DNA of 64,000 nt from Vibrio agarivorans (GTDB taxonomy: Bacteria; Pseudomonadota; Gammaproteobacteria; Enterobacterales; Vibrionaceae), in the NCBI RefSeq assembly GCF_030409635.1, contig NZ_JAUFQF010000004.1, forward strand, positions 1,336,241 through 1,400,240. Reading direction: 5' to 3'. Positions 50,157-59,436 of the stretch are shown piece by piece; position 1 is the first letter of the stretch, and each line of letters begins with the position of its first letter. The translations under genes and the position numbers were made by a program. Under the pieces are notes generated by a model. The model had not been told where the DNA came from, ran no database searches, and saw nothing but the letters and a program-made list of their open reading frames with translations.

Positions 50157-50175
50157 TGTTCTTATAGAACGAATT

Positions 50176-50220
50176 TGGTGGCCCCTCGCAGACTTGAACT
50201 GCGGACCAATCGATTATGAG
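50176..50220. repeat. attachment site attL: 45-bp repeat of the tRNA-Ile2 3' end
   Basis: Exact copy of the CCA end, acceptor 3' strand, T arm, variable region and most of the anticodon arm, identical to 59361-59405. After 50220 the sequence no longer matches the tRNA, so this is the far border left by integration, not a working tRNA gene. Confidence 0.95.
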
Positions 50221-50347
50221 CGCGTTTTTGTATGTTATTAGAGGAATCGCAGTGAACATAGGCAAACAATAGAAGCATATAATAACAATGGCTTAAATTG
50301 AGTTCTGTTTCTTTTTTGTTCACGTTGGTTTATGGTTGTACAATTGT

Positions 50348-50368
50348 TTTGCTACATATTTGCTACAC
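50348..50368. repeat. integrase arm-type repeats, left end
   Basis: Two direct TTTGCTACA units 11 bp apart (TTTGCTACATA then TTTGCTACAC), just upstream of the integrase gene. An almost identical pair is at 59282-59302 near the other end. Confidence 0.7.
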
Positions 50369-50390
50369 GGAAGAAGCGGAGAAATAGTAA

Positions 50391-51626
50391 ATGCCTATCA
50401 AAGCCAAGATTACAGCTAGTGCATTAAAGAATCTCAAAGTAGAAGATAAGCGCCTCAATGACACTGAGGTAGTAGGTTTTCATGTCAGGATTTCTCAGAA
50501 AGGGAGAATGAAGTATTACCTTTTTTATCGCTTGAACGGCAAGCAAGTGAACTACCTGATAGGTTCAACTAGTCAGTTAACACCAGCTCAAGCGAGAGAT
50601 ATAGCTAAAGAAAAGGTAGGTATGGTTGCTCAAGGTGTAGATGTTCAGAGTGAAAAAAAAGCCGCCAAACAAGATTATTTGATTCAGAAAAGCCATAGAC
50701 TTGGTTCATACCTAGAAGAAAAGTATTACCCGTTTCTAGTTTCTAGAAACCCGAAAACAGCTAAGAAAACCTATCAACACTTGGTGAGTCGATTTGATTT
50801 CTTGTTAGATAAGCAGCTTAGTGAAATCTCTGCTTGGGAAGTTCAGAATTGGGTGACTAAAAGAAGAGAGTTAGGAAGAGCACCAGCAACCATCAATTAC
50901 TCGATTAACTCACTCAAAGGCGCTCTATCTCGGGCTGTGGAGTGGGGAATAATAGAATCCCATGAGCTTTCTAAAGTAACGACGATCAAAGAGGATAACA
51001 CTCGTCTTAGATATTTATCATCATATGAGAGGCAGAACTTGCTTAAAGCTATTGATGCTAGGAGCAGGCTCATAAGGGATAAACGCAAAAGTGCTAATGA
51101 ACATCGTGAGAAACGGAATAAGGACTTACTGCCTGACTTATCAAATGTAAGGTTTGTAGATTATTTGGAGCCGATAGTGCTCACAGCCATGAATACCGGA
51201 CTTAGACGAGGGGAGTTACTTTCGTTAAAGTGGAATGATGTATTCTTCGAAAACAGATATTTAGTCGTTAAAGCAAGCAATGCAAAATCAAAAAAAACGA
51301 GAAACATACCACTTAATGACTCGGTGTTTGAAGTTCTAGTTCAGTGGAAAGCTCAAACCCCCAATACCACTTGGGTATTCACATCTGGTGGCAACACCCA
51401 GCTGACAGATATCAAGAAACCTTGGCTGAAAGTCATCGAGGCTTCAGGGATTGAAGACTTTAATTTTCATGACCTTAGACATGATTTTGCCAGTAACTTA
51501 GCAATGGCTGGTGTTGACTTAAATACGATTCGTGAGCTTTTGGGTCACTCCGACCTAAAGATGACACTACGTTACGCACATTTAGCTCCAGAGCATAAAG
51601 CCGCAGCTGTAAACCTAATAGGATAA
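50391..51626 (+). CDS. int: tyrosine site-specific integrase
   Basis: Protein of 411 residues: an N-terminal arm-binding domain (about 1-95), a core-binding SAM-like domain (about 100-195) and a catalytic domain. Catalytic residues can be read: Arg272 in NTGLRRGELLSL, Lys near 301, HDLRH (His360-Arg363), His386 in LLGHSDLKMTLRYAH and the nucleophile Tyr395. It should catalyse integration into and excision from tRNA-Ile2. The gene reads inward from the attL side, away from the intact tRNA. A moderate ribosome binding site (GGAG) precedes the ATG. Confidence 0.97.
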   Translation: MPIKAKITASALKNLKVEDKRLNDTEVVGFHVRISQKGRMKYYLFYRLNGKQVNYLIGSTSQLTPAQARDIAKEKVGMVAQGVDVQSEKKAAKQDYLIQKSHRLGSYLEEKYYPFLVSRNPKTAKKTYQHLVSRFDFLLDKQLSEISAWEVQNWVTKRRELGRAPATINYSINSLKGALSRAVEWGIIESHELSKVTTIKEDNTRLRYLSSYERQNLLKAIDARSRLIRDKRKSANEHREKRNKDLLPDLSNVRFVDYLEPIVLTAMNTGLRRGELLSLKWNDVFFENRYLVVKASNAKSKKTRNIPLNDSVFEVLVQWKAQTPNTTWVFTSGGNTQLTDIKKPWLKVIEASGIEDFNFHDLRHDFASNLAMAGVDLNTIRELLGHSDLKMTLRYAHLAPEHKAAAVNLIG

Positions 51627-51637
51627 CGCAAGCAATC

Positions 51638-52549
51638 ATGGAAGATTCTAGAACCTATATCCACTTTTCTGAAATTGAGAAAAGAACCTCCCTTAACGCA
51701 GAGCAAGTCATTGACGCAATCTATGACGGAAAAATAAATGTTTATTGCTTTGTTCGTGAGCAAGATCTTGGCTTAGTGGTTAATGACACCCTATTAGGTT
51801 TATTTGATTACCAAGGCATGGTTCTTTTACCAGTAAAACTGGCAATTACATTGGCTTGTGACAACAAAGATGTTGAGCTTTCAGAGCTTCATATTGTTGA
51901 ACCCACTGCGATAAAGTTTATTCATGATATCCGAACTAGGTTTAATGGTTTGCCTAGCCGTGTATTTAAAGCTTATGACTACGATGGTGAAGTGCCGGAC
52001 AAACCTTTTATTGCAGTAGGAAGAATTGTTGAGTCTAGCGATTTTGGAGCTGAGTTGCTCACTGTAAGCGAGGAAATGAAAGCTTCTAAGCCAACTTCAT
52101 TCGAAGAATACCTTTCAGGATTCAAATCGATTTTATCAACCGATAGGAAGCTTGTGAAAGTAAGCCCTATAGGCTTGAAACCTTGTGATATCAGGCTAGA
52201 AAGCCAAGAGTTAAGCCAGATTTTTTGCTTAGGTGCTACTGAATCTAAACCGGTTAATCAGCGGTACTCAAACCAAAGTAGTCAGGGCTTAAAGCCTGAA
52301 ATAACCGTACATCCATTGGAGTGCATTATCGAGAGAGTCTTAAACGAATATCCGAAAGCTACATCGAGAGAGGCTTGGAATGCTATTCGAGCTAAGTATC
52401 GGTTGGAGCAAGGAGAATATGATGTCGATTCGATAATCCACGATATGTCTGATGAGAAAATCTATTACAAGAATGGTTCGGATGAAGGGTTGAGCTATAG
52501 AAGCTTTCAAAACTTAATCAGTAGGGCGAGAAAAAAAGTTCACTGTTAG
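51638..52549 (+). CDS. unknown island protein following the integrase
   Basis: Protein of 303 residues that I do not recognise. It starts only 11 bp after int and is probably co-transcribed. The N-terminal third (residues 1-80, beginning YIHFSEIEKRTSLNAEQVID) looks like a helix-rich, perhaps DNA-binding part. The C-terminal third (about 215-303, PLECIIERVLNEYPKATSRE and SYRSFQNLISRARKKV) is basic and helical, a pattern seen in accessory proteins of integrative elements. No catalytic motif, signal peptide or membrane helix is visible. A role in excision, replication or regulation is a guess from position. Confidence 0.7.
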   Translation: MEDSRTYIHFSEIEKRTSLNAEQVIDAIYDGKINVYCFVREQDLGLVVNDTLLGLFDYQGMVLLPVKLAITLACDNKDVELSELHIVEPTAIKFIHDIRTRFNGLPSRVFKAYDYDGEVPDKPFIAVGRIVESSDFGAELLTVSEEMKASKPTSFEEYLSGFKSILSTDRKLVKVSPIGLKPCDIRLESQELSQIFCLGATESKPVNQRYSNQSSQGLKPEITVHPLECIIERVLNEYPKATSREAWNAIRAKYRLEQGEYDVDSIIHDMSDEKIYYKNGSDEGLSYRSFQNLISRARKKVHC

Positions 52550-52623
52550 TTGCACTGATATCTGCACATGCATGCTTTACAGGTTTTTATGTTCTTCAAC
52601 TTAATCAAACGGAGAACTAAATC

Positions 52624-52857
52624 ATGAGCATTCAGTTTTGTGGCAAAGCTGCGCTGACAGAGCAAGAAACAGCAAATTATATAGGAATGAGTCGTTCGTT
52701 TTTGCGTCAAGCGAGAATGGAAGGCCCAAGGAAAAATCGTACGGTAGCCCCTCCTTTTATCAAGATTGGTAGGGCTGTACGTTATATCAAAGAGGACCTA
52801 GATAAATGGCTAGATAGCCATGAAAAGTTAAACCAACTTGTTCATGGAGGTGTGTAA
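52624..52857 (+). CDS. alpA: AlpA/excisionase-like DNA-binding regulator
   Basis: Small protein of 77 residues with a MerR/AlpA-type winged helix: ALTEQETANYIGMSRSFLRQ recognition region, then the wing FIKIGRAVRYIKEDLDKWLD. AlpA-like proteins in P4-type satellites and islands activate the integrase or act as excision directionality factors. The stop is followed directly by the vapE ATG, so the two are translationally coupled. Confidence 0.85.
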   Translation: MSIQFCGKAALTEQETANYIGMSRSFLRQARMEGPRKNRTVAPPFIKIGRAVRYIKEDLDKWLDSHEKLNQLVHGGV

Positions 52858-54096
52858 ATGCCAAATGAAAGTAACCATCCTTGCTTCCCTCATGTGAAGT
52901 ACACTGAATCAGGAAAGGTAATTGCTCTGAATACTGCAGATAACCTAAAGGCCTTACTTGATAGTGTTGGCTATACCGCCAGATTCAACCAAATGACTTT
53001 GGAGACAGACATATTTCGCTCCTCTAGAAGTCTCGGCTCTCCTGAGTTTGTGAGAAGTGAGTTGATTTCATTATCATCTATTCACGGGTTGCCAAAGTCT
53101 GCAATTGACGATCATTTTAGCGCTATAGCAATTGAAAATAGCTATCACCCTGTTGAAGAGTGGTTAAATGGTGAATGGGACGGTGTTCAAAGGGTTGATA
53201 GGGTAATCAGCTGCCTTGACTCAAAGAGCCCAGAAGTGACAGAAATTGTGTTAAAGCGCTGGCTAGTAGGGTGTGTAGCCTCACTCGTAAAAACTAACTT
53301 TAAATCGAAGTTAGTTCCAATCTTGCAAGGAGAGCAATCGTTCCGAAAGACTGCTTTTGTGGAGCGTATTGCTCGTGTCCATGTTGGGGCATTTTTGGAA
53401 GGAGCAGAGCTAAACCCAGATAATAAGGATAGTGTTTTATCTGTTATACGATCTTGGATTGTAGAGTTGGGAGAGTTAGAACGCTCAACCAAAAACTGCC
53501 AAGGCGCACTGAAGGCTTTTATCAGTAGAGGGTGTGACACCGTTCGCCCACCGTATGGTCGAACAGATATTAAGAAAGATCGGCAGACTAACTTAATTGC
53601 AACTGTAAATGGCACTGACTTTCTAAAGGATGAAACTGGTAACACTAGGTATGCTGTAATCGAACTGGTTGGTGAAACCAACATGGACAGATTGAATGAG
53701 GTTTTGGGCTGGGAGTATTTACCTTCAGGAGAGCTAACGTTAGTAAACCCTGATTGTCTGAAGCAATTTTGGTTAGAAGTTAAGTATATGTTGTTGATTG
53801 AGAATCAGGCTTGGATGCTCTCTAGGAGTGAGCAAGAGTTAGTGGCTAATGTGTCGGCTAAGCATGTGGATAAAGGTGTTTGGTACAATACGCTATCTGA
53901 ACATATTGAGCTTTGTGATGGTAAAGCTAGAGAATGGATGACAACAAAGCAGGTTTGTGAATATCTGAGAATTGACGTATCAAAAGGCAACGTGGTGGGT
54001 AAAGCACTATCTTTATTGAGCAAGGAGGGAATATTGGAAAAGAAAGCTCTAAACGGGATAAATCGATATTGTTTCCCTTCTGTCATACCTTTTTGA
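52858..54096 (+). CDS. VapE-family (virulence-associated E) P-loop protein
   Basis: Protein of 412 residues fitting the VapE/VirE domain (about residues 90-330). Landmarks: NGEWDGVQRVDRVI, the P-loop PILQGEQSFRKT (158-165), SWIVELGELERS (199-210, Walker-B-like), ALKAFISRGCDTVRPPYGR and the sensor TVNGTDFLKDETGNTRY. The P-loop has Arg163 where Walker A normally has Gly. The family occurs in phage satellites and islands as a primase/helicase-type replication factor. The usual N-terminal primase domain is missing and the C-terminal 80 residues are winged-helix-like (WMTTKQVCEYLRI). Confidence 0.88.
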   Translation: MPNESNHPCFPHVKYTESGKVIALNTADNLKALLDSVGYTARFNQMTLETDIFRSSRSLGSPEFVRSELISLSSIHGLPKSAIDDHFSAIAIENSYHPVEEWLNGEWDGVQRVDRVISCLDSKSPEVTEIVLKRWLVGCVASLVKTNFKSKLVPILQGEQSFRKTAFVERIARVHVGAFLEGAELNPDNKDSVLSVIRSWIVELGELERSTKNCQGALKAFISRGCDTVRPPYGRTDIKKDRQTNLIATVNGTDFLKDETGNTRYAVIELVGETNMDRLNEVLGWEYLPSGELTLVNPDCLKQFWLEVKYMLLIENQAWMLSRSEQELVANVSAKHVDKGVWYNTLSEHIELCDGKAREWMTTKQVCEYLRIDVSKGNVVGKALSLLSKEGILEKKALNGINRYCFPSVIPF

Positions 54097-54121
54097 ATTG
54101 TGAAGTTAGTAACAATGCTTC

Positions 54122-54166
54122 ACTTACTCCACTTGGTGCGCTCAAGGTGGGGTAAGTGGAGTAAGT
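54122..54166. repeat. 13-bp inverted repeat after vapE
   Basis: ACTTACTCCACTT at 54122-54134 pairs perfectly with AAGTGGAGTAAGT at 54154-54166 around a 19-nt G-rich centre. No T-run follows. It could be a replication-origin-type structure near vapE, a stabilising hairpin, or an operator. Confidence 0.8.
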
Positions 54167-54200
54167 AATTGTCAATTATTACGGGCTATCTATACAATAT

Positions 54201-54323
54201 TTTAGCCTTTGAAACGCTCAATTTTGTAACTGTTAACGAGGTCACTATTTAGCTTTGAAACGTTGAAGTAACGTCAGATTCTAAACAAAAAAGGTGTTTC
54301 TGATTGTCTATACTAGACTAGTA
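54201..54323. promoter_or_regulatory. direct repeats and palindrome upstream of avcI
   Basis: TTTAGCCTTTGAAACG (54201-54216) and TTTAGCTTTGAAACG (54248-54262) are near-identical direct repeats. TACTAG-A-CTAGTA (54311-54323) is a perfect palindrome 36 bp before the predicted -35 box. These make up most of the 320-bp gap between vapE and avcI. Confidence 0.45.
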
Positions 54324-54359
54324 ATGTTATGTTGATTTGGAAATCGAAAGCACGGCATA

Positions 54360-54387
54360 TTGAAAGCAAGGACTGCTTGTGTATAAT
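54360..54387 (+). promoter_or_regulatory. sigma-70 promoter of avcI
   Basis: TTGAAA and TATAAT separated by 16 bp, the latter a perfect -10 box. Transcription should begin near 54394, about 23 bases before the small ORF. Confidence 0.75.
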
Positions 54388-54393
54388 TTGCAC

Positions 54394-54600
54394 GATTTTT
54401 TTTCAAGGTGAATACTATGAGTGTGGTACGAATGGCTTCCCAAAGCATTAAGAACAAACGTGTATCAAACAACGAAATGAAGACCAAGGTGGCATCCGTT
54501 CACTCTTTGACTGATCGAAAAAAACTGATCGCGTTCGAAAATGCTAAAAAAAATATGAAACTAGCTGCTGATAAGCTTGATTGGTAGATTGTTGATTCAC
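54394..54600 (+). ncRNA. avcI: AvcI/DifV-type inhibitory RNA (predicted)
   Basis: In V. cholerae a small RNA encoded directly upstream of the deaminase (DifV, or AvcI) keeps the enzyme inactive, and loss of this unstable RNA during phage-induced transcription shut-off releases it. Here the same place holds a strong promoter, about 200 bases of transcript and no independent terminator that I can see; the 3' end is therefore a guess, set just before the hairpin that covers the deaminase start. RNA identity is inferred from position, not from sequence comparison. Confidence 0.65.
54417..54587 (+). CDS. 56-residue small ORF inside the avcI region
   Basis: ATG with AAGGTG six bases upstream, 56 codons and a TAG stop, ending 50 bp before the deaminase gene. 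The peptide is basic and Lys/Asn/Ser-rich, running from MSVVRMASQSIKNK to KKNMKLAADKLDW, with a probably helical C-terminal half. It overlaps the expected inhibitory RNA. It may be a true small protein (antitoxin-like) or only an accidental frame in a regulatory RNA; the good ribosome binding site and spacing favour translation. Confidence 0.6.
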   Translation: MSVVRMASQSIKNKRVSNNEMKTKVASVHSLTDRKKLIAFENAKKNMKLAADKLDW

Positions 54601-54640
54601 ATAATAGGATCTGGTTAGGTTTCAATCAGGTTCTATTATG
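54600..54640 (+). promoter_or_regulatory. hairpin covering the avcD ribosome binding site and start codon
   Basis: Bases 54600-54613 pair with 54627-54640 over 14 consecutive pairs, two of them G-U. The 3' arm contains AGG (54628-54630) and the ATG (54638-54640) of the deaminase. The 13-nt loop is open. Such a structure should hold back translation unless it is opened. Confidence 0.7.
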
Positions 54641-56230
54641 TCTACAAAACATCAGCAACATACCATAGCCCCCTCCCCATCAGCAGAACAACATACAGCA
54701 CAAAATGACAACTCTTTAAGTAACTCTGCTTCAGAGAACCAGTACAGTAACTCCCTTGAGGCTATTCGTTCAAGACACTCTCAAGAACTCATTATTGGTT
54801 TGTGCGGTGCTGTAGGTGCTGGAATAAAGCGCCTAAAAAATGCTTTAGTCACTGAACTTCGCAAAGCTAACTACCATGTTGAACACATTCGCTTGAGTGA
54901 ATTAATTGCCCATACTCAGCCAAATTCTAAAGAAATACTAGAATTAAGAAAATATAGACGTTATCAGACCTTGCAGGACTTGGGGGATGAGTTGCGTAAA
55001 AAATCCAATACTGCTGTAGCAGACATGGGAATCAGAAGAATCGGTATTGTCCGTAACTCTTTATTCGGTAGTAAGCAAACGCAAGGAAAAGCCGTTAAGG
55101 TCACGAAAAAAGTAGCTTACGTGATTGACCAAATAAAACATCATGAAGAGGTGGAGCTTTTCCAAGAGGTATATAGAAGGAATTTCTATATGTTAGGCCT
55201 TTTGAGGACTCAAGATGAGCGAGAAAAAAACATAAGAGAAGAAGGTATTACCGATTCAACTGAAATCGCAAAGCTTATTGAAAGAGATAGAAAAAGCAGT
55301 GATGGAAATGGCCAGCACGTTGAAAAAGCTATCCAAAAATCAGATTACTTTATTAGAAATCTTGATGAAAAAGAGGAGCTAAATAACTCAATTTCAAGGT
55401 TTATTAATCTAATCCATGGAGTCGGTAGCATTACACCAAAACGAGATGAGCGTGGTTTATATGCTGCTTACTCTGCATCACTGGCTTCAGCTTGTTTATC
55501 TCGTCAAGTTGGTGCTGCCATCATGGATGATAATGGCCAAATTGTAGCTACAGGCTGCAATGATGTTCCAAAGTTCAAAGGTGGTTTGTACGACTCTGAT
55601 GGTGGTCCAGATAAGCGGTGCTATAACAAGTCTGGTTGTCAAAATGATAAACATAAGTCGATCTTAAAAGATGAAATTTTCGAGATACTTAAAGGTGAAG
55701 GTGTCAAAGACCCAGAAAAGGTCGCAGACAAGATTTTTAATAACTCAAAAGCTAAATCATTAATTGAGTATTCAAGAGCGATACACGCAGAGATGGATGC
55801 AATAGTGTCTTTGACAAGGCAATCAAATGCAAACACTGTTGGTAAAACACTCTACTGTACTACATACCCGTGCCATAGTTGCGCTAGACACATTGTAGCA
55901 GCGGGTATAGAAAGAGTTGTTTATATTGAGCCATATGAAAAGAGTTTAGCTATGGATCTGCATGGCGATGCAATTTGCCACATAGACAACACCTCGAAAG
56001 AAAAGCTATTGATGCAAAATTTTGAGGGTACTGCTCCCAATAGATATGCTGAATTCTTCATATATAGTAAAAAGAGAAAAGACAAGAATGGTGATGCAAT
56101 TACTTATGAACTTCCATCCTCCACACAAGTAGATCCTCACCAACTGGATTGTTACGTTGATTACGAATTGAAAATAAAAGAAATTGCAGACATGAATACT
56201 GGTGAGGATAAATTAGTTCCAGAAGAGTAA
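54638..56230 (+). CDS. avcD: anti-phage deoxycytidylate deaminase AvcD/DcdV
   Basis: Protein of 530 residues. N-terminal P-loop (kinase-like) domain: IIGLCGAVGAGIKRLKNAL at about 52-70, with Gly62 and Lys64 in a variant Walker A. C-terminal zinc-dependent cytidine/dCMP deaminase domain from about residue 272: YSASLASACLSRQVGAAI, catalytic His383-Ala-Glu385 and zinc cysteines Cys412 and Cys415 in YPCHSCARH. Length and architecture equal V. cholerae DcdV/AvcD (VSP-I), which on phage infection deaminates dCMP/dCTP and starves phage DNA synthesis. The N-terminal 48 residues are Ser/Asn/Gln-rich and probably disordered. A terminator follows. Confidence 0.9.
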   Translation: MSTKHQQHTIAPSPSAEQHTAQNDNSLSNSASENQYSNSLEAIRSRHSQELIIGLCGAVGAGIKRLKNALVTELRKANYHVEHIRLSELIAHTQPNSKEILELRKYRRYQTLQDLGDELRKKSNTAVADMGIRRIGIVRNSLFGSKQTQGKAVKVTKKVAYVIDQIKHHEEVELFQEVYRRNFYMLGLLRTQDEREKNIREEGITDSTEIAKLIERDRKSSDGNGQHVEKAIQKSDYFIRNLDEKEELNNSISRFINLIHGVGSITPKRDERGLYAAYSASLASACLSRQVGAAIMDDNGQIVATGCNDVPKFKGGLYDSDGGPDKRCYNKSGCQNDKHKSILKDEIFEILKGEGVKDPEKVADKIFNNSKAKSLIEYSRAIHAEMDAIVSLTRQSNANTVGKTLYCTTYPCHSCARHIVAAGIERVVYIEPYEKSLAMDLHGDAICHIDNTSKEKLLMQNFEGTAPNRYAEFFIYSKKRKDKNGDAITYELPSSTQVDPHQLDCYVDYELKIKEIADMNTGEDKLVPEE

Positions 56231-56280
56231 CTTACAAAATGGCACTTTAAGTTGATTGTTACTTCCATGTCTACTTCAAT

Positions 56281-56304
56281 AAAGCCCAGCACATGCTGGG
56301 CTTT
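56281..56304. terminator. bidirectional terminator after avcD
   Basis: Perfect palindrome AAAGCCCAGCA / TGCTGGGCTTT followed by TTT on the plus strand; on the minus strand it can end the convergent lipoprotein transcript. Confidence 0.85.
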
Positions 56305-56395
56305 TTCCTGAATAGTTTTGTCGTCGCATTGTTCGCTATACGATTTGCCTGTAAATATTGCTGGTTATTGACAAATAATCAAAACAAACCCTGAG

Positions 56396-57433
56396 TCAGT
56401 TGAGAGGAAATTCGACAAAAGCCCATAGCTTTCCATTACCAGTAGAAATAGTGTTTATAATTCTAACGTCTTTGCCCTGCGCTACGGTGTTGATTGCTGG
56501 TGCTAATTTGTAAAATGGGAAATCAGGATAGTCAGACCTGACATTCACGTTTGTTCTGGTTTTGAGGGTACCAATGATTTGATTAGCGTCGCTTACAACT
56601 AGGTTTGTTACCCCGAGAGGTTTACCCTTGTCATCAAAATGACCTACATAAATCCACCCTTGACCTGAAGATGTACTATTTTCAAGCGAGCTTCTGTTTT
56701 TAATATCTTGTTGGGGGTAGCTACGTATGGCTACAACTTGCCCCGTAACTTCAATTGACTCGTCGTTGTGCAACAATATCTTGATGTTTTGTATAGACTC
56801 TAATGCTTTAAGTAGGTTTTCAGTGTCCAATTTGGATACTTTGGGTGTATATGTATCTACACCTTTACCGTGAATCCCTTGGATAGTGAATAGCAGACTT
56901 CCAGTAACTTGTTTTCTTTCAGCAGCTGCGGCTACAGCAAATAAATCACCTAAATTTATATCAGCTTCGTTAGTACTAATAGTTGCTACAATTCTTGCTC
57001 CAATACCTACTTTATGATCTTCACCTGCTTTAACTGCACCTTCAGCATCTAAAGGTTTTACGTTCATAAAACGAACCCATTGAGAAACTATTTCATACTT
57101 TCCACCTTTAGCGCTAACACCAGTAGTGCCATACTTTAATTCACCAAAAGAACTAGTATCTGCGATAAAAACGTAATCTTCGCTGTTTGGTAAATTATTT
57201 AACCAACATGTTTTTCTCAGTTTAGAGTTTGTAGTGTTGCTGCAATCGTCAGAGAAGTTTGAAATAGCGTACTTGCTTTTATCAAAGGCGAAAGGCTGAA
57301 CTGGTTGGAAGGAGTTGGTGTAATAGGTGTTTTTAAGTACGTCGTCACCTAATGGGGAGTTACCTGGTTGATTGTTATTAGTACACCCAACTGCGAAAAT
57401 AGCAGTTACAAGGGTGAGAATGTTCTGTTTCAT
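56396..57433 (-). CDS. island lipoprotein with C-terminal SH3-like domain
   Basis: Protein of 345 residues with a lipoprotein signal (MKQNILTLVTAIFAVGC, lipid-modified Cys17, followed by Thr, so outer-membrane sorting is expected). The middle part (about 90-260) is not recognisable to me. The last 60 residues (LKTRTNVNVRSDYPDFPFYK through GKLWAFVEFPLN) resemble a bacterial SH3 domain of the kind that binds peptidoglycan or peptides. It lies downstream of the second lipoprotein on the same strand. A cell-surface role such as phage exclusion is possible but unsupported. Confidence 0.75.
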   Translation of the reverse strand: MKQNILTLVTAIFAVGCTNNNQPGNSPLGDDVLKNTYYTNSFQPVQPFAFDKSKYAISNFSDDCSNTTNSKLRKTCWLNNLPNSEDYVFIADTSSFGELKYGTTGVSAKGGKYEIVSQWVRFMNVKPLDAEGAVKAGEDHKVGIGARIVATISTNEADINLGDLFAVAAAAERKQVTGSLLFTIQGIHGKGVDTYTPKVSKLDTENLLKALESIQNIKILLHNDESIEVTGQVVAIRSYPQQDIKNRSSLENSTSSGQGWIYVGHFDDKGKPLGVTNLVVSDANQIIGTLKTRTNVNVRSDYPDFPFYKLAPAINTVAQGKDVRIINTISTGNGKLWAFVEFPLN

Positions 57434-57537
57434 AATCTATCCCTTAATAAATATACTTACCAAAGGATAGCCTAGTCTAACTGACTATTTTTTTAAATTT
57501 TTTACTGAGCCATTAACTTAGTGAACACTAGACTTTT

Positions 57538-57574
57538 CTTAGCTCTAGAGAATACTAACTAATCTAGAGCTAAG
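57538..57574. repeat. 12-bp inverted repeat between the lipoprotein genes
   Basis: CTTAGCTCTAGA / TCTAGAGCTAAG perfect arms with a 13-nt loop, 11 bp past the stop of the upstream lipoprotein gene. No T-run on either strand; perhaps a processing or stability hairpin. Confidence 0.75.
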
Positions 57575-57584
57575 GGCTACCAAA

Positions 57585-58265
57585 TCAATATGTAATGTCC
57601 GGTCTGATATGCTGCTTCACCACATACTTAATCGACATGTTATCATACTCAAGAACTTCAATTTCTGCTCCTTTGTATTTGATAATGTTAGATTTAGTCA
57701 TGTCGTACTCAACGTTGTTAGTGAATGCGCCTCTAGCTACATCATTCGAAAGCTCGCGATAAGAGATATTGATCTTGTCACCGACTGAGCCGCTGTAAAC
57801 TAGTAACTGTCTGAATGAACTGTTACCTGTCATAGTCTTTTTGCTGATAGTCGCATCACCTTGATAGCAGGATGCTTCTGTTACAAATGGTGTTGATACG
57901 CAGACTTTATCACTAGAGTTGATAGACAACGCTATCGCAGGGTCGCAGAGCGCCGCTTTGATTACTCTTGCACCGTTTACTCCTTCTGAGTGGAAAAACT
58001 GCTTACCTTTACTGTCAGAACCTCTCTCTAAGTAGTCTCCTTTCAGGATATCGAAACAAGTACCTTGAATATGGTTATTTACCGTTAGAACATTGGATGT
58101 AGTGGCTTTACCTTGATCAATCATAGATTCGCCAACGTGCACTTCTACCACAGTGTCTAAATCTGGTAGAGAGTATTCTTCATACTCAGATTGAGCATTC
58201 ATTGGAATACTAGAGCATCCAACCATACCAATAGAAAGTAAGCCTATGAGCGTTGTATTTTTCAC
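57585..58265 (-). CDS. island lipoprotein of unknown function
   Basis: Protein of 226 residues with a lipoprotein signal (MKNTTLIGLLSIGMVGC, Cys17 followed by Ser, outer-membrane type). The mature part has four cysteines (GTCFDI, ALCDPA, KVCVST, ASCYQG) that may form two disulfides, and looks beta-rich. I recognise no family. It stands between the Mrr-like nuclease gene and the other lipoprotein on the same strand, with 73 bp and 151 bp gaps, so the three may be one unit or separately promoted. Confidence 0.7.
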   Translation of the reverse strand: MKNTTLIGLLSIGMVGCSSIPMNAQSEYEEYSLPDLDTVVEVHVGESMIDQGKATTSNVLTVNNHIQGTCFDILKGDYLERGSDSKGKQFFHSEGVNGARVIKAALCDPAIALSINSSDKVCVSTPFVTEASCYQGDATISKKTMTGNSSFRQLLVYSGSVGDKINISYRELSNDVARGAFTNNVEYDMTKSNIIKYKGAEIEVLEYDNMSIKYVVKQHIRPDITY

Positions 58266-58338
58266 TGCTTTAATACCTAAATTGTTGTGATTAATTTGTA
58301 TTCCGTATGGTAACTGTTATGTTGCTGGTTTTGAATGT

Positions 58339-59178
58339 TTAAGTATTAAAATTCTGATGGATGTCTTGGGTAAATCTACAGTCGGGAAAACGTTCACAAC
58401 CATAAAAGTTCTTCCCTTTGTTTTGACCTTTTTTGGCGACTCTGATGACAAGAGTGCTATTACACACAGGACAAGTTAGGTTAGGCTTAGGAGGCGCGGG
58501 AGTGCTACTATTTAGTGACTGCTTACCCGATTCAATCATGTTTACTAACTCATCTTTATCTACTAACCAAAATCTTTTGCCTTTAGCGAATTCTTTAGCT
58601 TCACTAGTGTAGCTACCAGACGTGACGAGAATCATCCTAGCTGCTTGCTGTGATAGCATGACACCGTACATTTCTCTAAGAACTTGAACACCAACTTTTC
58701 TCGTTTTCCAGTGTTTACATTGTACTAAGCTCAGCTCTCCATTTTTGCGTAGTTCAATATCAACACCTCCATCTGGCGAGTGTGATAGATATTGCTTTAC
58801 TTCATATCCATTCTGACGAAAAAACTCCCCGATGAATGCTTCAAACTCAATCCAGCTCATATCGTTGATAACTGCTTTGGAGTTATTAGGCACAGTAATG
58901 ATTTTTGTCACTTTTTTCCTGAACTGGACCCCTCGAGCTACTTGCTTCATGAATGAAATAGGAGCGGGAATAATAAAGAGAATCGCAAAGTAGGGAGCAA
59001 GCTTCTGAAAGATGTCAGCAAATGCTATTGATAGCATGTTATCACTTGGTAGAAGCATATTTGGGGCTATATAAGCCAAGCTTACATATGATGTCGCAGA
59101 TACGAATACACTCATCCACCAAGGTGCATCCATAAGTTGCCATAGAAGGCCTTCATTTTTCCTTGCCATATCAGACAC
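58339..59178 (-). CDS. membrane-anchored Mrr-like restriction endonuclease with zinc ribbon
   Basis: Protein of 279 residues. Two hydrophobic helices come first (about 21-43 and 60-78), then an Mrr-type PD-(D/E)xK domain (about 108-205): FEAFIGEFFRQNGYEVKQY, Asp140 in PDGGVDIELR and Gln153-Cys-Lys155 in LVQCKHW. A topoisomerase-type zinc ribbon closes the protein (Cys236, Cys239, Cys261, Cys267). The start is a GTG at 59178 or an ATG at 59169. The nuclease residues are intact. It is the gene nearest the tRNA end of the element and a probable defence nuclease acting at the inner membrane. Confidence 0.85.
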   Translation of the reverse strand: MSDMARKNEGLLWQLMDAPWWMSVFVSATSYVSLAYIAPNMLLPSDNMLSIAFADIFQKLAPYFAILFIIPAPISFMKQVARGVQFRKKVTKIITVPNNSKAVINDMSWIEFEAFIGEFFRQNGYEVKQYLSHSPDGGVDIELRKNGELSLVQCKHWKTRKVGVQVLREMYGVMLSQQAARMILVTSGSYTSEAKEFAKGKRFWLVDKDELVNMIESGKQSLNSSTPAPPKPNLTCPVCNSTLVIRVAKKGQNKGKNFYGCERFPDCRFTQDIHQNFNT

Positions 59179-59281
59179 TCATCCTGAGTATAAAGTTGTA
59201 TATGCATTTAATCACACACTACCGAAGGCAGCATATTTAATTAATAAACCTGAGAAGGTGGTCGAAAGAGGGAGGAGATAG

Positions 59282-59302
59282 TTTGCTACACATTTGCTAC
59301 AC
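59282..59302. repeat. integrase arm-type repeats, right end
   Basis: Two direct TTTGCTACA units 11 bp apart, differing from the left-end pair (50348-50368) by one base and in the same orientation. Confidence 0.7.
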
Positions 59303-59311
59303 AAACAGCAG

Positions 59312-59355
59312 AAAAGCAAAAGGCCTGAGAAGTGAAATCACTCTCAGGCCTTTCT
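59312..59355 (-). terminator. tRNA-Ile2 terminator, copy carried by the element
   Basis: A 12-bp stem AAAGGCCTGAGA / TCTCAGGCCTTT, 43 of 44 bases identical to the copy at 50113-50156. It ends transcription of the tRNA after integration and so replaces the host copy. Confidence 0.8.
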
Positions 59356-59360
59356 GTATA

Positions 59361-59436
59361 TGGTGGCCCCTCGCAGACTTGAACTGCGGACCAATCGATT
59401 ATGAGTCGACTGCTCTAACCACTGAGCTAAGGGGCC
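59361..59436 (-). tRNA. ileX: tRNA-Ile2 (CAU anticodon, lysidine-modified type)
   Basis: 76 bases including encoded CCA. The acceptor pairs GGCCCCT with AGGGGCC; the anticodon loop reads CTCATAA with CAT anticodon. The sequence corresponds to E. coli ileX/ileY, where C34 is changed to lysidine to read AUA; automatic annotation often calls it tRNA-Met. It lies next to rpoD as in E. coli. The 3' part of the gene is the attachment site of the element (59361-59405) and remains intact. Confidence 0.93.

What the first reader, a model, noticed from the sequence alone, without database searches (positions are those of the whole stretch)
54394..54600. The inhibitory RNA region contains a well-formed 56-codon ORF
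The ORF at 54417-54587 has AAGGTG six bases before its ATG, a perfect -10 promoter upstream and a stop 50 bases before avcD. The published inhibitor in V. cholerae is described as an RNA. A basic 56-aa peptide with a good ribosome binding site raises the possibility of a peptide antitoxin, a dual-function RNA, or translation-dependent control of the RNA.
Basis: partly seen in the sequence, partly recalled or inferred. Interest (0 to 1): 0.75.

Follow-up and report, generated by a model that had tools for sequence, protein, structure and literature searches.

The report
Conserved small protein inside AvcI RNA
The stretch upstream of the phage-defence enzyme AvcD, described in print as a non-coding inhibitory RNA, carries a conserved gene for a protein of about 56 amino acids, so the control of this defence system needs to be re-examined.

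Summary
ORF 54417-54587 (56 codons, TAG) has AAGGTG six bases before ATG, TTGAAA-N16-TATAAT upstream, and its stop 50 bases before avcD. Comparison shows a real gene. All 27 counted loci (AvcD at least 39% identical) have a same-strand ORF of 51-68 codons there, a V. cholerae VSP-I copy included; 26 of 27 end in Trp before the stop (ETEC: Asp). Shuffled DNA gives such an ORF in about 7%, one ending in Trp in 0.06%. In DNA-level alignments only the true frame is conserved (16 pairs, mean z 3.9 against -0.7 and -0.6); dN/dS is 0.24-0.63 in the 13 of 18 pairs where it is finite. Folding signal lies outside the ORF, in a covarying hairpin over the avcD start. The ORF also has about 30% fewer synonymous changes than expected from avcD, so an added RNA constraint is possible. 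Published rifampicin/spectinomycin results favour RNA as inhibitor. I conclude: a conserved third component of AvcID, probably with both protein and RNA function. Translation and action on AvcD are untested.

The parts
54360..54387 (+). promoter-like TTGAAA-N16-TATAAT; transcription start inferred near 54394
   Evidence: 11 of 12 matches; the same TTGAAA-16-TATAAT 28-29 nt before the start codon in L053, L016, L014, L017, L054. Start site inferred, not measured.
54406..54411 (+). Shine-Dalgarno AAGGTG of the small ORF (contains the in-frame GTG 54408)
   Evidence: SD-like bases before the start in many of the 27 loci (read by eye from the table, not scored)
54417..54587 (+). avcI small ORF, 56 aa, basic, predicted C-terminal helix (residues 31-53), last residue Trp56, stop TAG
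54599..54641 (+). RNA hairpin (18 bp, 7-nt loop) that pairs up the avcD SD (AGG 54628-54630) and start codon
   Evidence: -20.2 kcal/mol, z -5.1, 0 of 200 shuffles as stable; covariation in relatives
54638..56230 (+). avcD, anti-phage dCTP deaminase, 530 aa
   Evidence: NF041025 488 bits, cut-off 400; PADLOC dCTPase E 3e-174; Pfam PF00383

Best explanation
avcI is an mRNA for a conserved protein of about 56 residues, and probably not only that. Shown by sequence: the ORF is under selection as protein across the AvcID loci examined, has a promoter-like site of the same layout in most of them, and is followed (where the gap is 42 nt or more) by a hairpin that hides the avcD ribosome-binding site. 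Inferred: the transcript is dual-function. Ribosomes make the AvcI protein in excess while the hairpin keeps avcD translation low; the protein (a flexible, mostly basic N-terminus and a C-terminal helix ending in Trp) binds AvcD or its own RNA and helps the RNA to hold AvcD inactive. When a phage stops host transcription the labile RNA is lost and AvcD is released. My split: ORF translated and selected as protein 0.95; the protein acts on AvcD or in the AvcD-RNA complex 0.55; RNA also functional as such 0.65.
For: ORF in 27 of 27 counted loci with AvcD >=39% identity, last residue Trp in 26 of 27, with TAA, TAG and TGA all used after it. True-frame BLOSUM excess on DNA-level alignments: 12 of 16 pairs p = 0.001, mean z 3.9; in the other two frames 31 of 32 tests not below 0.05 (pairs share loci and are not independent). 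dN/dS <1 in all 13 pairs with finite dS of 18. Chance of such an ORF about 7% per locus, ending in Trp 0.06%. Peptide profile: strong hits (E < 1e-9) in 4 of 227 Vibrio genomes, exactly the 4 with AvcD of at least 48% identity (three of the four loci are rows of the profile, G175 is not). Peptide and AvcD distances correlate, Spearman 0.60, Mantel p 0.001, 26 loci. Promoter-like best site with a 16-nt spacer in 23 of 27 loci (no shuffle control). Stop-to-avcD stretch folding z mean -2.3 against +0.14 for the ORF, 27 loci; in 6 loci 6 of 10 hairpin pairs covary, 13 compensated cells against 5.4 in shuffles, 0 of 500. Fewer synonymous codon changes than expected from avcD: 76 against 109, 9 pairs. 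Published minimum functional length of AvcI ~171 bases (PMC10511110) equals the window ORF with its stop.
Against: PMC10511110 calls AvcI a non-coding RNA that binds AvcD, and reports that rifampicin but not spectinomycin activates AvcD and depletes AvcI; a short-lived peptide antitoxin should be lost under spectinomycin. The ETEC p58 copy (probably the published ETEC system) has the ORF but no terminal Trp, an acidic peptide (pI 4.3) and no such hairpin; the E. coli C11 peptide is acidic too (pI 4.5). 7 of 27 loci, all with gaps of 11-40 nt, lack the hairpin. The peptide changes faster than AvcD (for example dN 0.03-0.09 against 0.02-0.03 in four close pairs). The deficit of synonymous change is absent in 3 of 9 pairs and could reflect codon bias of a strongly expressed gene. 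No translation data exist here; the fold of peptide joined to AvcD was uninformative.
Confidence: 0.55

Rival explanations
1. The protein alone is the antitoxin (type II-like pair); the RNA activity reported is that of a translated mRNA.
For: Conserved protein, low-confidence N-terminus and confident C-terminal helix, upstream of the toxin on the same strand, no folding signal in the ORF, published minimum of ~171 bases equal to an ORF length. In the V. cholerae locus the annotated GTG start (L004 1138) lies directly behind a -10 box (TAGAAT 1132-1137) and so probably before the transcription start, while the conserved ATG is at 1198: a test aimed at the GTG would leave the protein intact.
Against: Published complex formation in vitro and inhibition ascribed to AvcI RNA, and no activation by spectinomycin; the deficit of synonymous change.
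Confidence: 0.22
2. RNA is the only inhibitor; the ORF product serves another purpose (regulator of its own promoter, partner in phage sensing) or is a leader peptide whose translation controls avcD or RNA decay.
For: Published RNA results; Trp directly before the stop and a hairpin over the avcD start recall attenuator leaders such as TnaC (recalled).
Against: The gap from stop to avcD varies from 11 to 78 nt and 7 of 27 loci lack the hairpin; no DNA-binding domain found for the window peptide in Pfam, NCBIfam, PADLOC or PHROGs; conservation is not confined to the last residues (Vxx[FLI] motif).
Confidence: 0.19
3. The ORF is a chance open frame within a non-coding RNA.
For: One locus alone would not exclude it: 14% of shuffles of the window's upstream DNA give a >=50-codon ORF.
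Against: 27 of 27 counted loci, frame-specific conservation, Trp before the stop in 26 of 27.
Confidence: 0.02

Closest known systems
AvcID of V. cholerae (VSP-I), V. parahaemolyticus and ETEC (PMC10511110, PMC12409362)
   Same: Same layout: small region upstream of avcD, NF041025 deaminase in the window; the V. cholerae-type copy (L004/L045; its neighbour matches solved cyclic AMP-GMP synthases, one named VC0179-like, and its ORF is identical to P0003 of V. cholerae apart from the start residue) has the ORF, 57 codons from the conserved ATG
   Different: The papers read describe AvcI as a small or non-coding RNA antitoxin; here it encodes a conserved protein
Type III toxin-antitoxin, ToxIN
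   Same: Transcript upstream of the toxin, lost when transcription stops (published)
   Different: No tandem repeats, no terminator-like site before the toxin, toxin is a deaminase, RNA is coding
Type II toxin-antitoxin pairs
   Same: Small antitoxin-sized protein upstream of the toxin on the same strand, predicted loose end plus helix
   Different: No known antitoxin or DNA-binding family found; binding to AvcD not shown; RNA role reported
Dual-function RNAs such as SgrS/SgrT and RNAIII (recalled)
   Same: One transcript with a reported RNA activity and a conserved small protein
   Different: Those pair with target mRNAs (recalled); AvcI is reported to bind its protein toxin

Membership tests
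AvcD / anti-phage dCTP deaminase | Score above the curated NF041025 cut-off | tested here: met
   488 bits, cut-off 400; PADLOC dCTPase
AvcD / anti-phage dCTP deaminase | Zinc deaminase motif HAE...PCxxC and a P-loop-like N-terminal stretch (criterion recalled) | tested here: met
   AvcD alignment (HAEMDAI, PCHSCARH, GAVGAGIK in the window); PF00383
Type III toxin-antitoxin | Antitoxin is a non-coding RNA | tested here: not met
   ORF conserved as protein. An additional RNA role is not excluded
Type III toxin-antitoxin | Tandem repeats in the antitoxin RNA (recalled criterion) | tested here: not met
   0 rows in 54300-54700; 0 direct repeats in window and L004, one weak pair in L016
Type III toxin-antitoxin | Intrinsic terminator between antitoxin RNA and toxin gene | tested here: not met
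   0 terminator-like sites in 54100-56400; PMC10511110 also predicted none
Type III toxin-antitoxin | RNA binds and inhibits the toxin protein | not testable with these tools
   Reported in PMC10511110 for AvcID
Type II toxin-antitoxin | Antitoxin is a protein under selection | tested here: met
Type II toxin-antitoxin | Antitoxin protein binds and inhibits the toxin | not testable with these tools
   Fold of peptide joined to AvcD uninformative, peptide blocks at pLDDT 25-35
Dual-function RNA | Translated ORF plus separate RNA activity | tested here: inconclusive
   Protein selection shown; RNA constraint suggested by fewer synonymous changes but no fold in the ORF
Translational-attenuator leader peptide | Constant geometry between leader stop and downstream hairpin (criterion recalled) | tested here: not met
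   Gap stop-to-avcD 11-78 nt, hairpin absent in 7 of 27 loci

The most novel reading that the evidence does not exclude
AvcID is not a type III system but a toxin-antitoxin pair, to my knowledge the first, whose antitoxin is a ribonucleoprotein made from one transcript: the avcI mRNA and the small protein it encodes act together on AvcD, and loss of the RNA during phage shut-off of transcription disarms both.
Probability: 0.3. Interest if true: 0.9.

Novelty: new variant of a known kind. Interest (0 to 1): 0.78.

Why it matters
A published defence system has been classified by a non-coding RNA antitoxin. A conserved protein inside that RNA in all 27 counted loci means the classification, the mapped 'minimal RNA' and any start-codon tests need rereading, and gives a direct two-way test (synonymous recoding against stop insertion). 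It also points to a small-protein family that annotation leaves as 'hypothetical protein' or misses: the window's copy found only itself by single-sequence search of 5.8 billion proteins, whereas a profile found 34 at E <= 1, 26 of them below 1e-3.

Tried and rejected
Chance ORF: rejected. RNA structure in the ORF: mean folding z +0.14, 27 loci, so no support; window transcript 54394-54652 z -0.65. A pairing between the avcI SD region and codons 38-42 appears in the consensus fold of 6 loci, but its pairs hardly vary, so it is no evidence. Single-sequence protein search gave only the window. Rfam at gathering score: only a tRNA. Viral-contig scan with AvcD: no relative. The AlphaFold model of the L015 peptide read through into AvcD was too poor to use. 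Terminator or tandem repeats: none. Protein-guided codon alignments favour protein identity, so the test was repeated on DNA-level alignments; there 3 of 16 pairs have gaps not in threes (L053/L016, L003/L023, L004/L019), which together add up to a net multiple of three, and L003/L023 reads one stop in L023 where misaligned. Four very close pairs are weak or not significant (p 0.019, 0.078, 0.126, 0.168).

Not found in print: searches listed no paper that I recognised as describing an AvcI-encoded protein; I saw listings only, except for passages or sections of four papers (PMC10511110, PMC9934689, PMC9455884, PMC12409362). The 2022 primary paper is not held, nor two related ones, so absence from print is not established.

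From memory only, unverified: I recall that the 2022 primary paper mutated a start codon (possibly a rare GTG) of the V. cholerae ORF and concluded that AvcI acts as RNA. If it was the annotated GTG, one search suggests that codon is not even transcribed. This must be checked in the paper.

Dropped before the count of 27: loci with AvcD identity of 36% or less (L005-L010, L012, L032-L038, L041, L042, L057, L060, L061: 19 scanned, no Trp-ending ORF of 40-110 codons in any), L011 (no AvcD hit), L013 (short dCMP-deaminase-like match), and second fetches of the same places (L002, L022, L027, L028, L045-L052, L058, L059, L062, L064-L067); L068 and L069 are the two marginal peptide hits. Of 61 plasmid records with a match I fetched 7; of 187 phage records 2; of the 10 distinct E. 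coli records from that collection (two others, NZ_CP128792 and NC_017723, are among the 7 plasmids).

Full report
What is there. The window holds avcD at 54638-56230 (NF041025 anti-phage dCTP deaminase, 488 bits against a cut-off of 400). Upstream lie TTGAAA-N16-TATAAT (54360-54387), an AAGGTG and a 56-codon ORF, 54417-54587, whose stop is 50 nt before avcD. The peptide has no hit in Pfam, PADLOC, NCBIfam or PHROGs and, as a single sequence, finds only itself.

Relatives. I collected avcD loci from Vibrio genomes (11 of 227 with any match, 4 of them at 48% identity or more), family, order and class samples, three genera around hits, genome contigs, plasmids, phages and E. coli. In each of the 27 counted loci with AvcD at least 39% identical there is a same-strand ORF of 51-68 codons (from the start I took as conserved) that ends 11-78 nt before avcD (L018 and L044 are nearly the same, so 26 at most are distinct). 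The last residue is Trp in 26 of 27, followed by TAA, TAG or TGA; the exception is ETEC p58, ending in Asp. Shared features are a Vxx[FLI] motif (V in 22 and I in 4 of 26; then F, L or I in 26 of 26) and an A/K-rich stretch before the final Trp. The ORF is annotated as 'hypothetical protein' in the P. damselae, E. coli, Klebsiella and ETEC records fetched but not in the V. coralliilyticus plasmid. A profile found 34 proteins at E <= 1, 26 below 1e-3; 29 of 34 end in Trp. One is a 77-aa V. cholerae protein on 999 contigs. Five do not end in Trp and look frame-shifted, truncated or extended (P0012, P0023, P0030, P0032, P0033, on 1-5 contigs each); P0029 ends in Trp but looks shifted inside.

Distant AvcD (36% identity or less) have no such ORF: 0 of 19 scanned. 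In Vibrio the peptide profile hits strongly in exactly the four genomes with the closer AvcD (three of these loci are in the profile, G175 is not); two marginal hits at E 0.007-0.01 look like chance and were not followed.

Is it coding? On DNA-level pairwise alignments (16 pairs, sharing loci) amino-acid similarity in the ORF frame exceeds permutations in 12 pairs at p = 0.001 and in one more at 0.019; three very close pairs are not significant (0.078, 0.126, 0.168). The other two frames have mean z -0.7 and -0.6 and 1 of 32 tests below 0.05. dN/dS is 0.24-0.63 in the 13 of 18 pairs with finite dS; AvcD itself is more constrained (0.06-0.12 in the four closest pairs). Shuffled upstream DNA gives an ORF of 50 codons or more in 7% and one ending in Trp in 0.06% of cases. 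I regard coding as settled by sequence; translation has not been observed.

Is there also RNA-level constraint? Folding of the ORF is that of shuffled sequence (mean z +0.14, sd 1.0, 27 loci), but the stretch from the ORF stop to avcD folds strongly (mean z -2.3, sd 2.2, all 27). Of the 20 loci with a gap of at least 42 nt, 17 have z of -1.6 or lower; L016 (-0.8), L017 (+0.1) and L030 (-1.4) do not, although their predicted stems also take in the SD region. In the window it is an 18-bp hairpin, z -5.1, that covers the avcD SD and start. In six related loci 6 of 10 pairs show changes on both sides (shuffles 3.6, 15 of 500 as high), 13 compensated cells against 5.4 (0 of 500), and sliding the partners destroys the signal; the structure was derived from these same sequences. 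Seven loci with gaps of 11-40 nt lack it (one of them, L021, has a short local stem, z -2.4). Separately, codons that keep their amino acid change less often in the ORF than in avcD: 76 observed, 109 expected after allowing for amino-acid composition, 9 pairs, lower in 6 and not in 3 (unadjusted z -4.0). Overlapping RNA function would do this; so would stronger codon bias.

Promoter. The best promoter-like site before the conserved start has a 16-nt spacer in 23 of 27 loci, 23-77 nt before the start; in L015, L030, L039 and L040 the best site has another spacing. I ran no shuffle control on that scan.

The published system. I read the outline, three sections and passages of PMC10511110, passages and one section of PMC12409362 and passages of PMC9934689 and PMC9455884. 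They treat AvcI as a small or non-coding RNA; PMC10511110 gives about 280 nt, a minimum functional length of ~171 bases, and loss with rifampicin but not with spectinomycin. Locus L045 is a VSP-I-type island: a neighbouring gene matches solved cyclic AMP-GMP synthases, and its avcI ORF matches the V. cholerae protein P0003, 57 codons from the conserved ATG. The annotated 77-codon version begins at a GTG that directly follows TTGAAG-N16-TAGAAT; TTGANN-N16-TAGAAT is also found in L019, L025 and L026, so that GTG probably lies before the transcription start. 171 bases is the length of the window ORF with its stop and of the V. cholerae ORF without it; this may be coincidence, since the published minimum was defined in work I could not read.

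Mechanism. The rifampicin and spectinomycin results fit a labile RNA better than a labile peptide, yet the protein is conserved in the loci examined. The simplest account of both is a dual-function transcript: protein and RNA together keep AvcD inactive, and the hairpin keeps avcD translation low relative to avcI. The protein model has a confident helix at residues 31-53 and a low-confidence N-terminus, as many protein antitoxins have (recalled), but binding to AvcD was not shown: the joined model was uninformative. Most peptides are basic (25 of 27 at pI above 9), but L043 and ETEC are acidic, so RNA binding cannot be the general rule.

Verdict. Observation confirmed; interpretation partly supported. 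New variant of a known kind: a known defence system with an unrecognised (as far as I could search) conserved protein in its 'non-coding' antitoxin RNA.

Noticed in passing
window 50173-59405: A 9.2-kb island bounded by a 48-bp direct repeat (50173-50220 and 59358-59405, 98% identical), the second copy overlapping a tRNA-Met gene, with integrase, HTH, VapE-like helicase, avcID and an Mrr-type nuclease: looks like a phage-satellite-type element.
   Followed up: partly
L004 1132-1200 (V. cholerae VSP-I type locus): The annotated GTG start of the 77-aa protein lies directly behind a -10 box; the conserved start is an ATG 60 nt downstream.
   Followed up: yes
L005 1015-1320 and L045 4590-4898: Similar small HTH proteins (shared GMDESSAS..MN.YEKG.HTPD) sit beside AvcD genes of both the ORF-less and the ORF-bearing kind.
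   Followed up: no
L018, L044, L020, L021, L043, L040, L039: Loci with a short gap (11-40 nt) between the small ORF and avcD lack the hairpin, suggesting two ways of limiting avcD translation.
   Followed up: partly
window 54400-54411 with 54529-54541: The avcI SD region could pair with codons inside its own ORF; seen in the consensus fold of six loci but almost without variation.
   Followed up: partly
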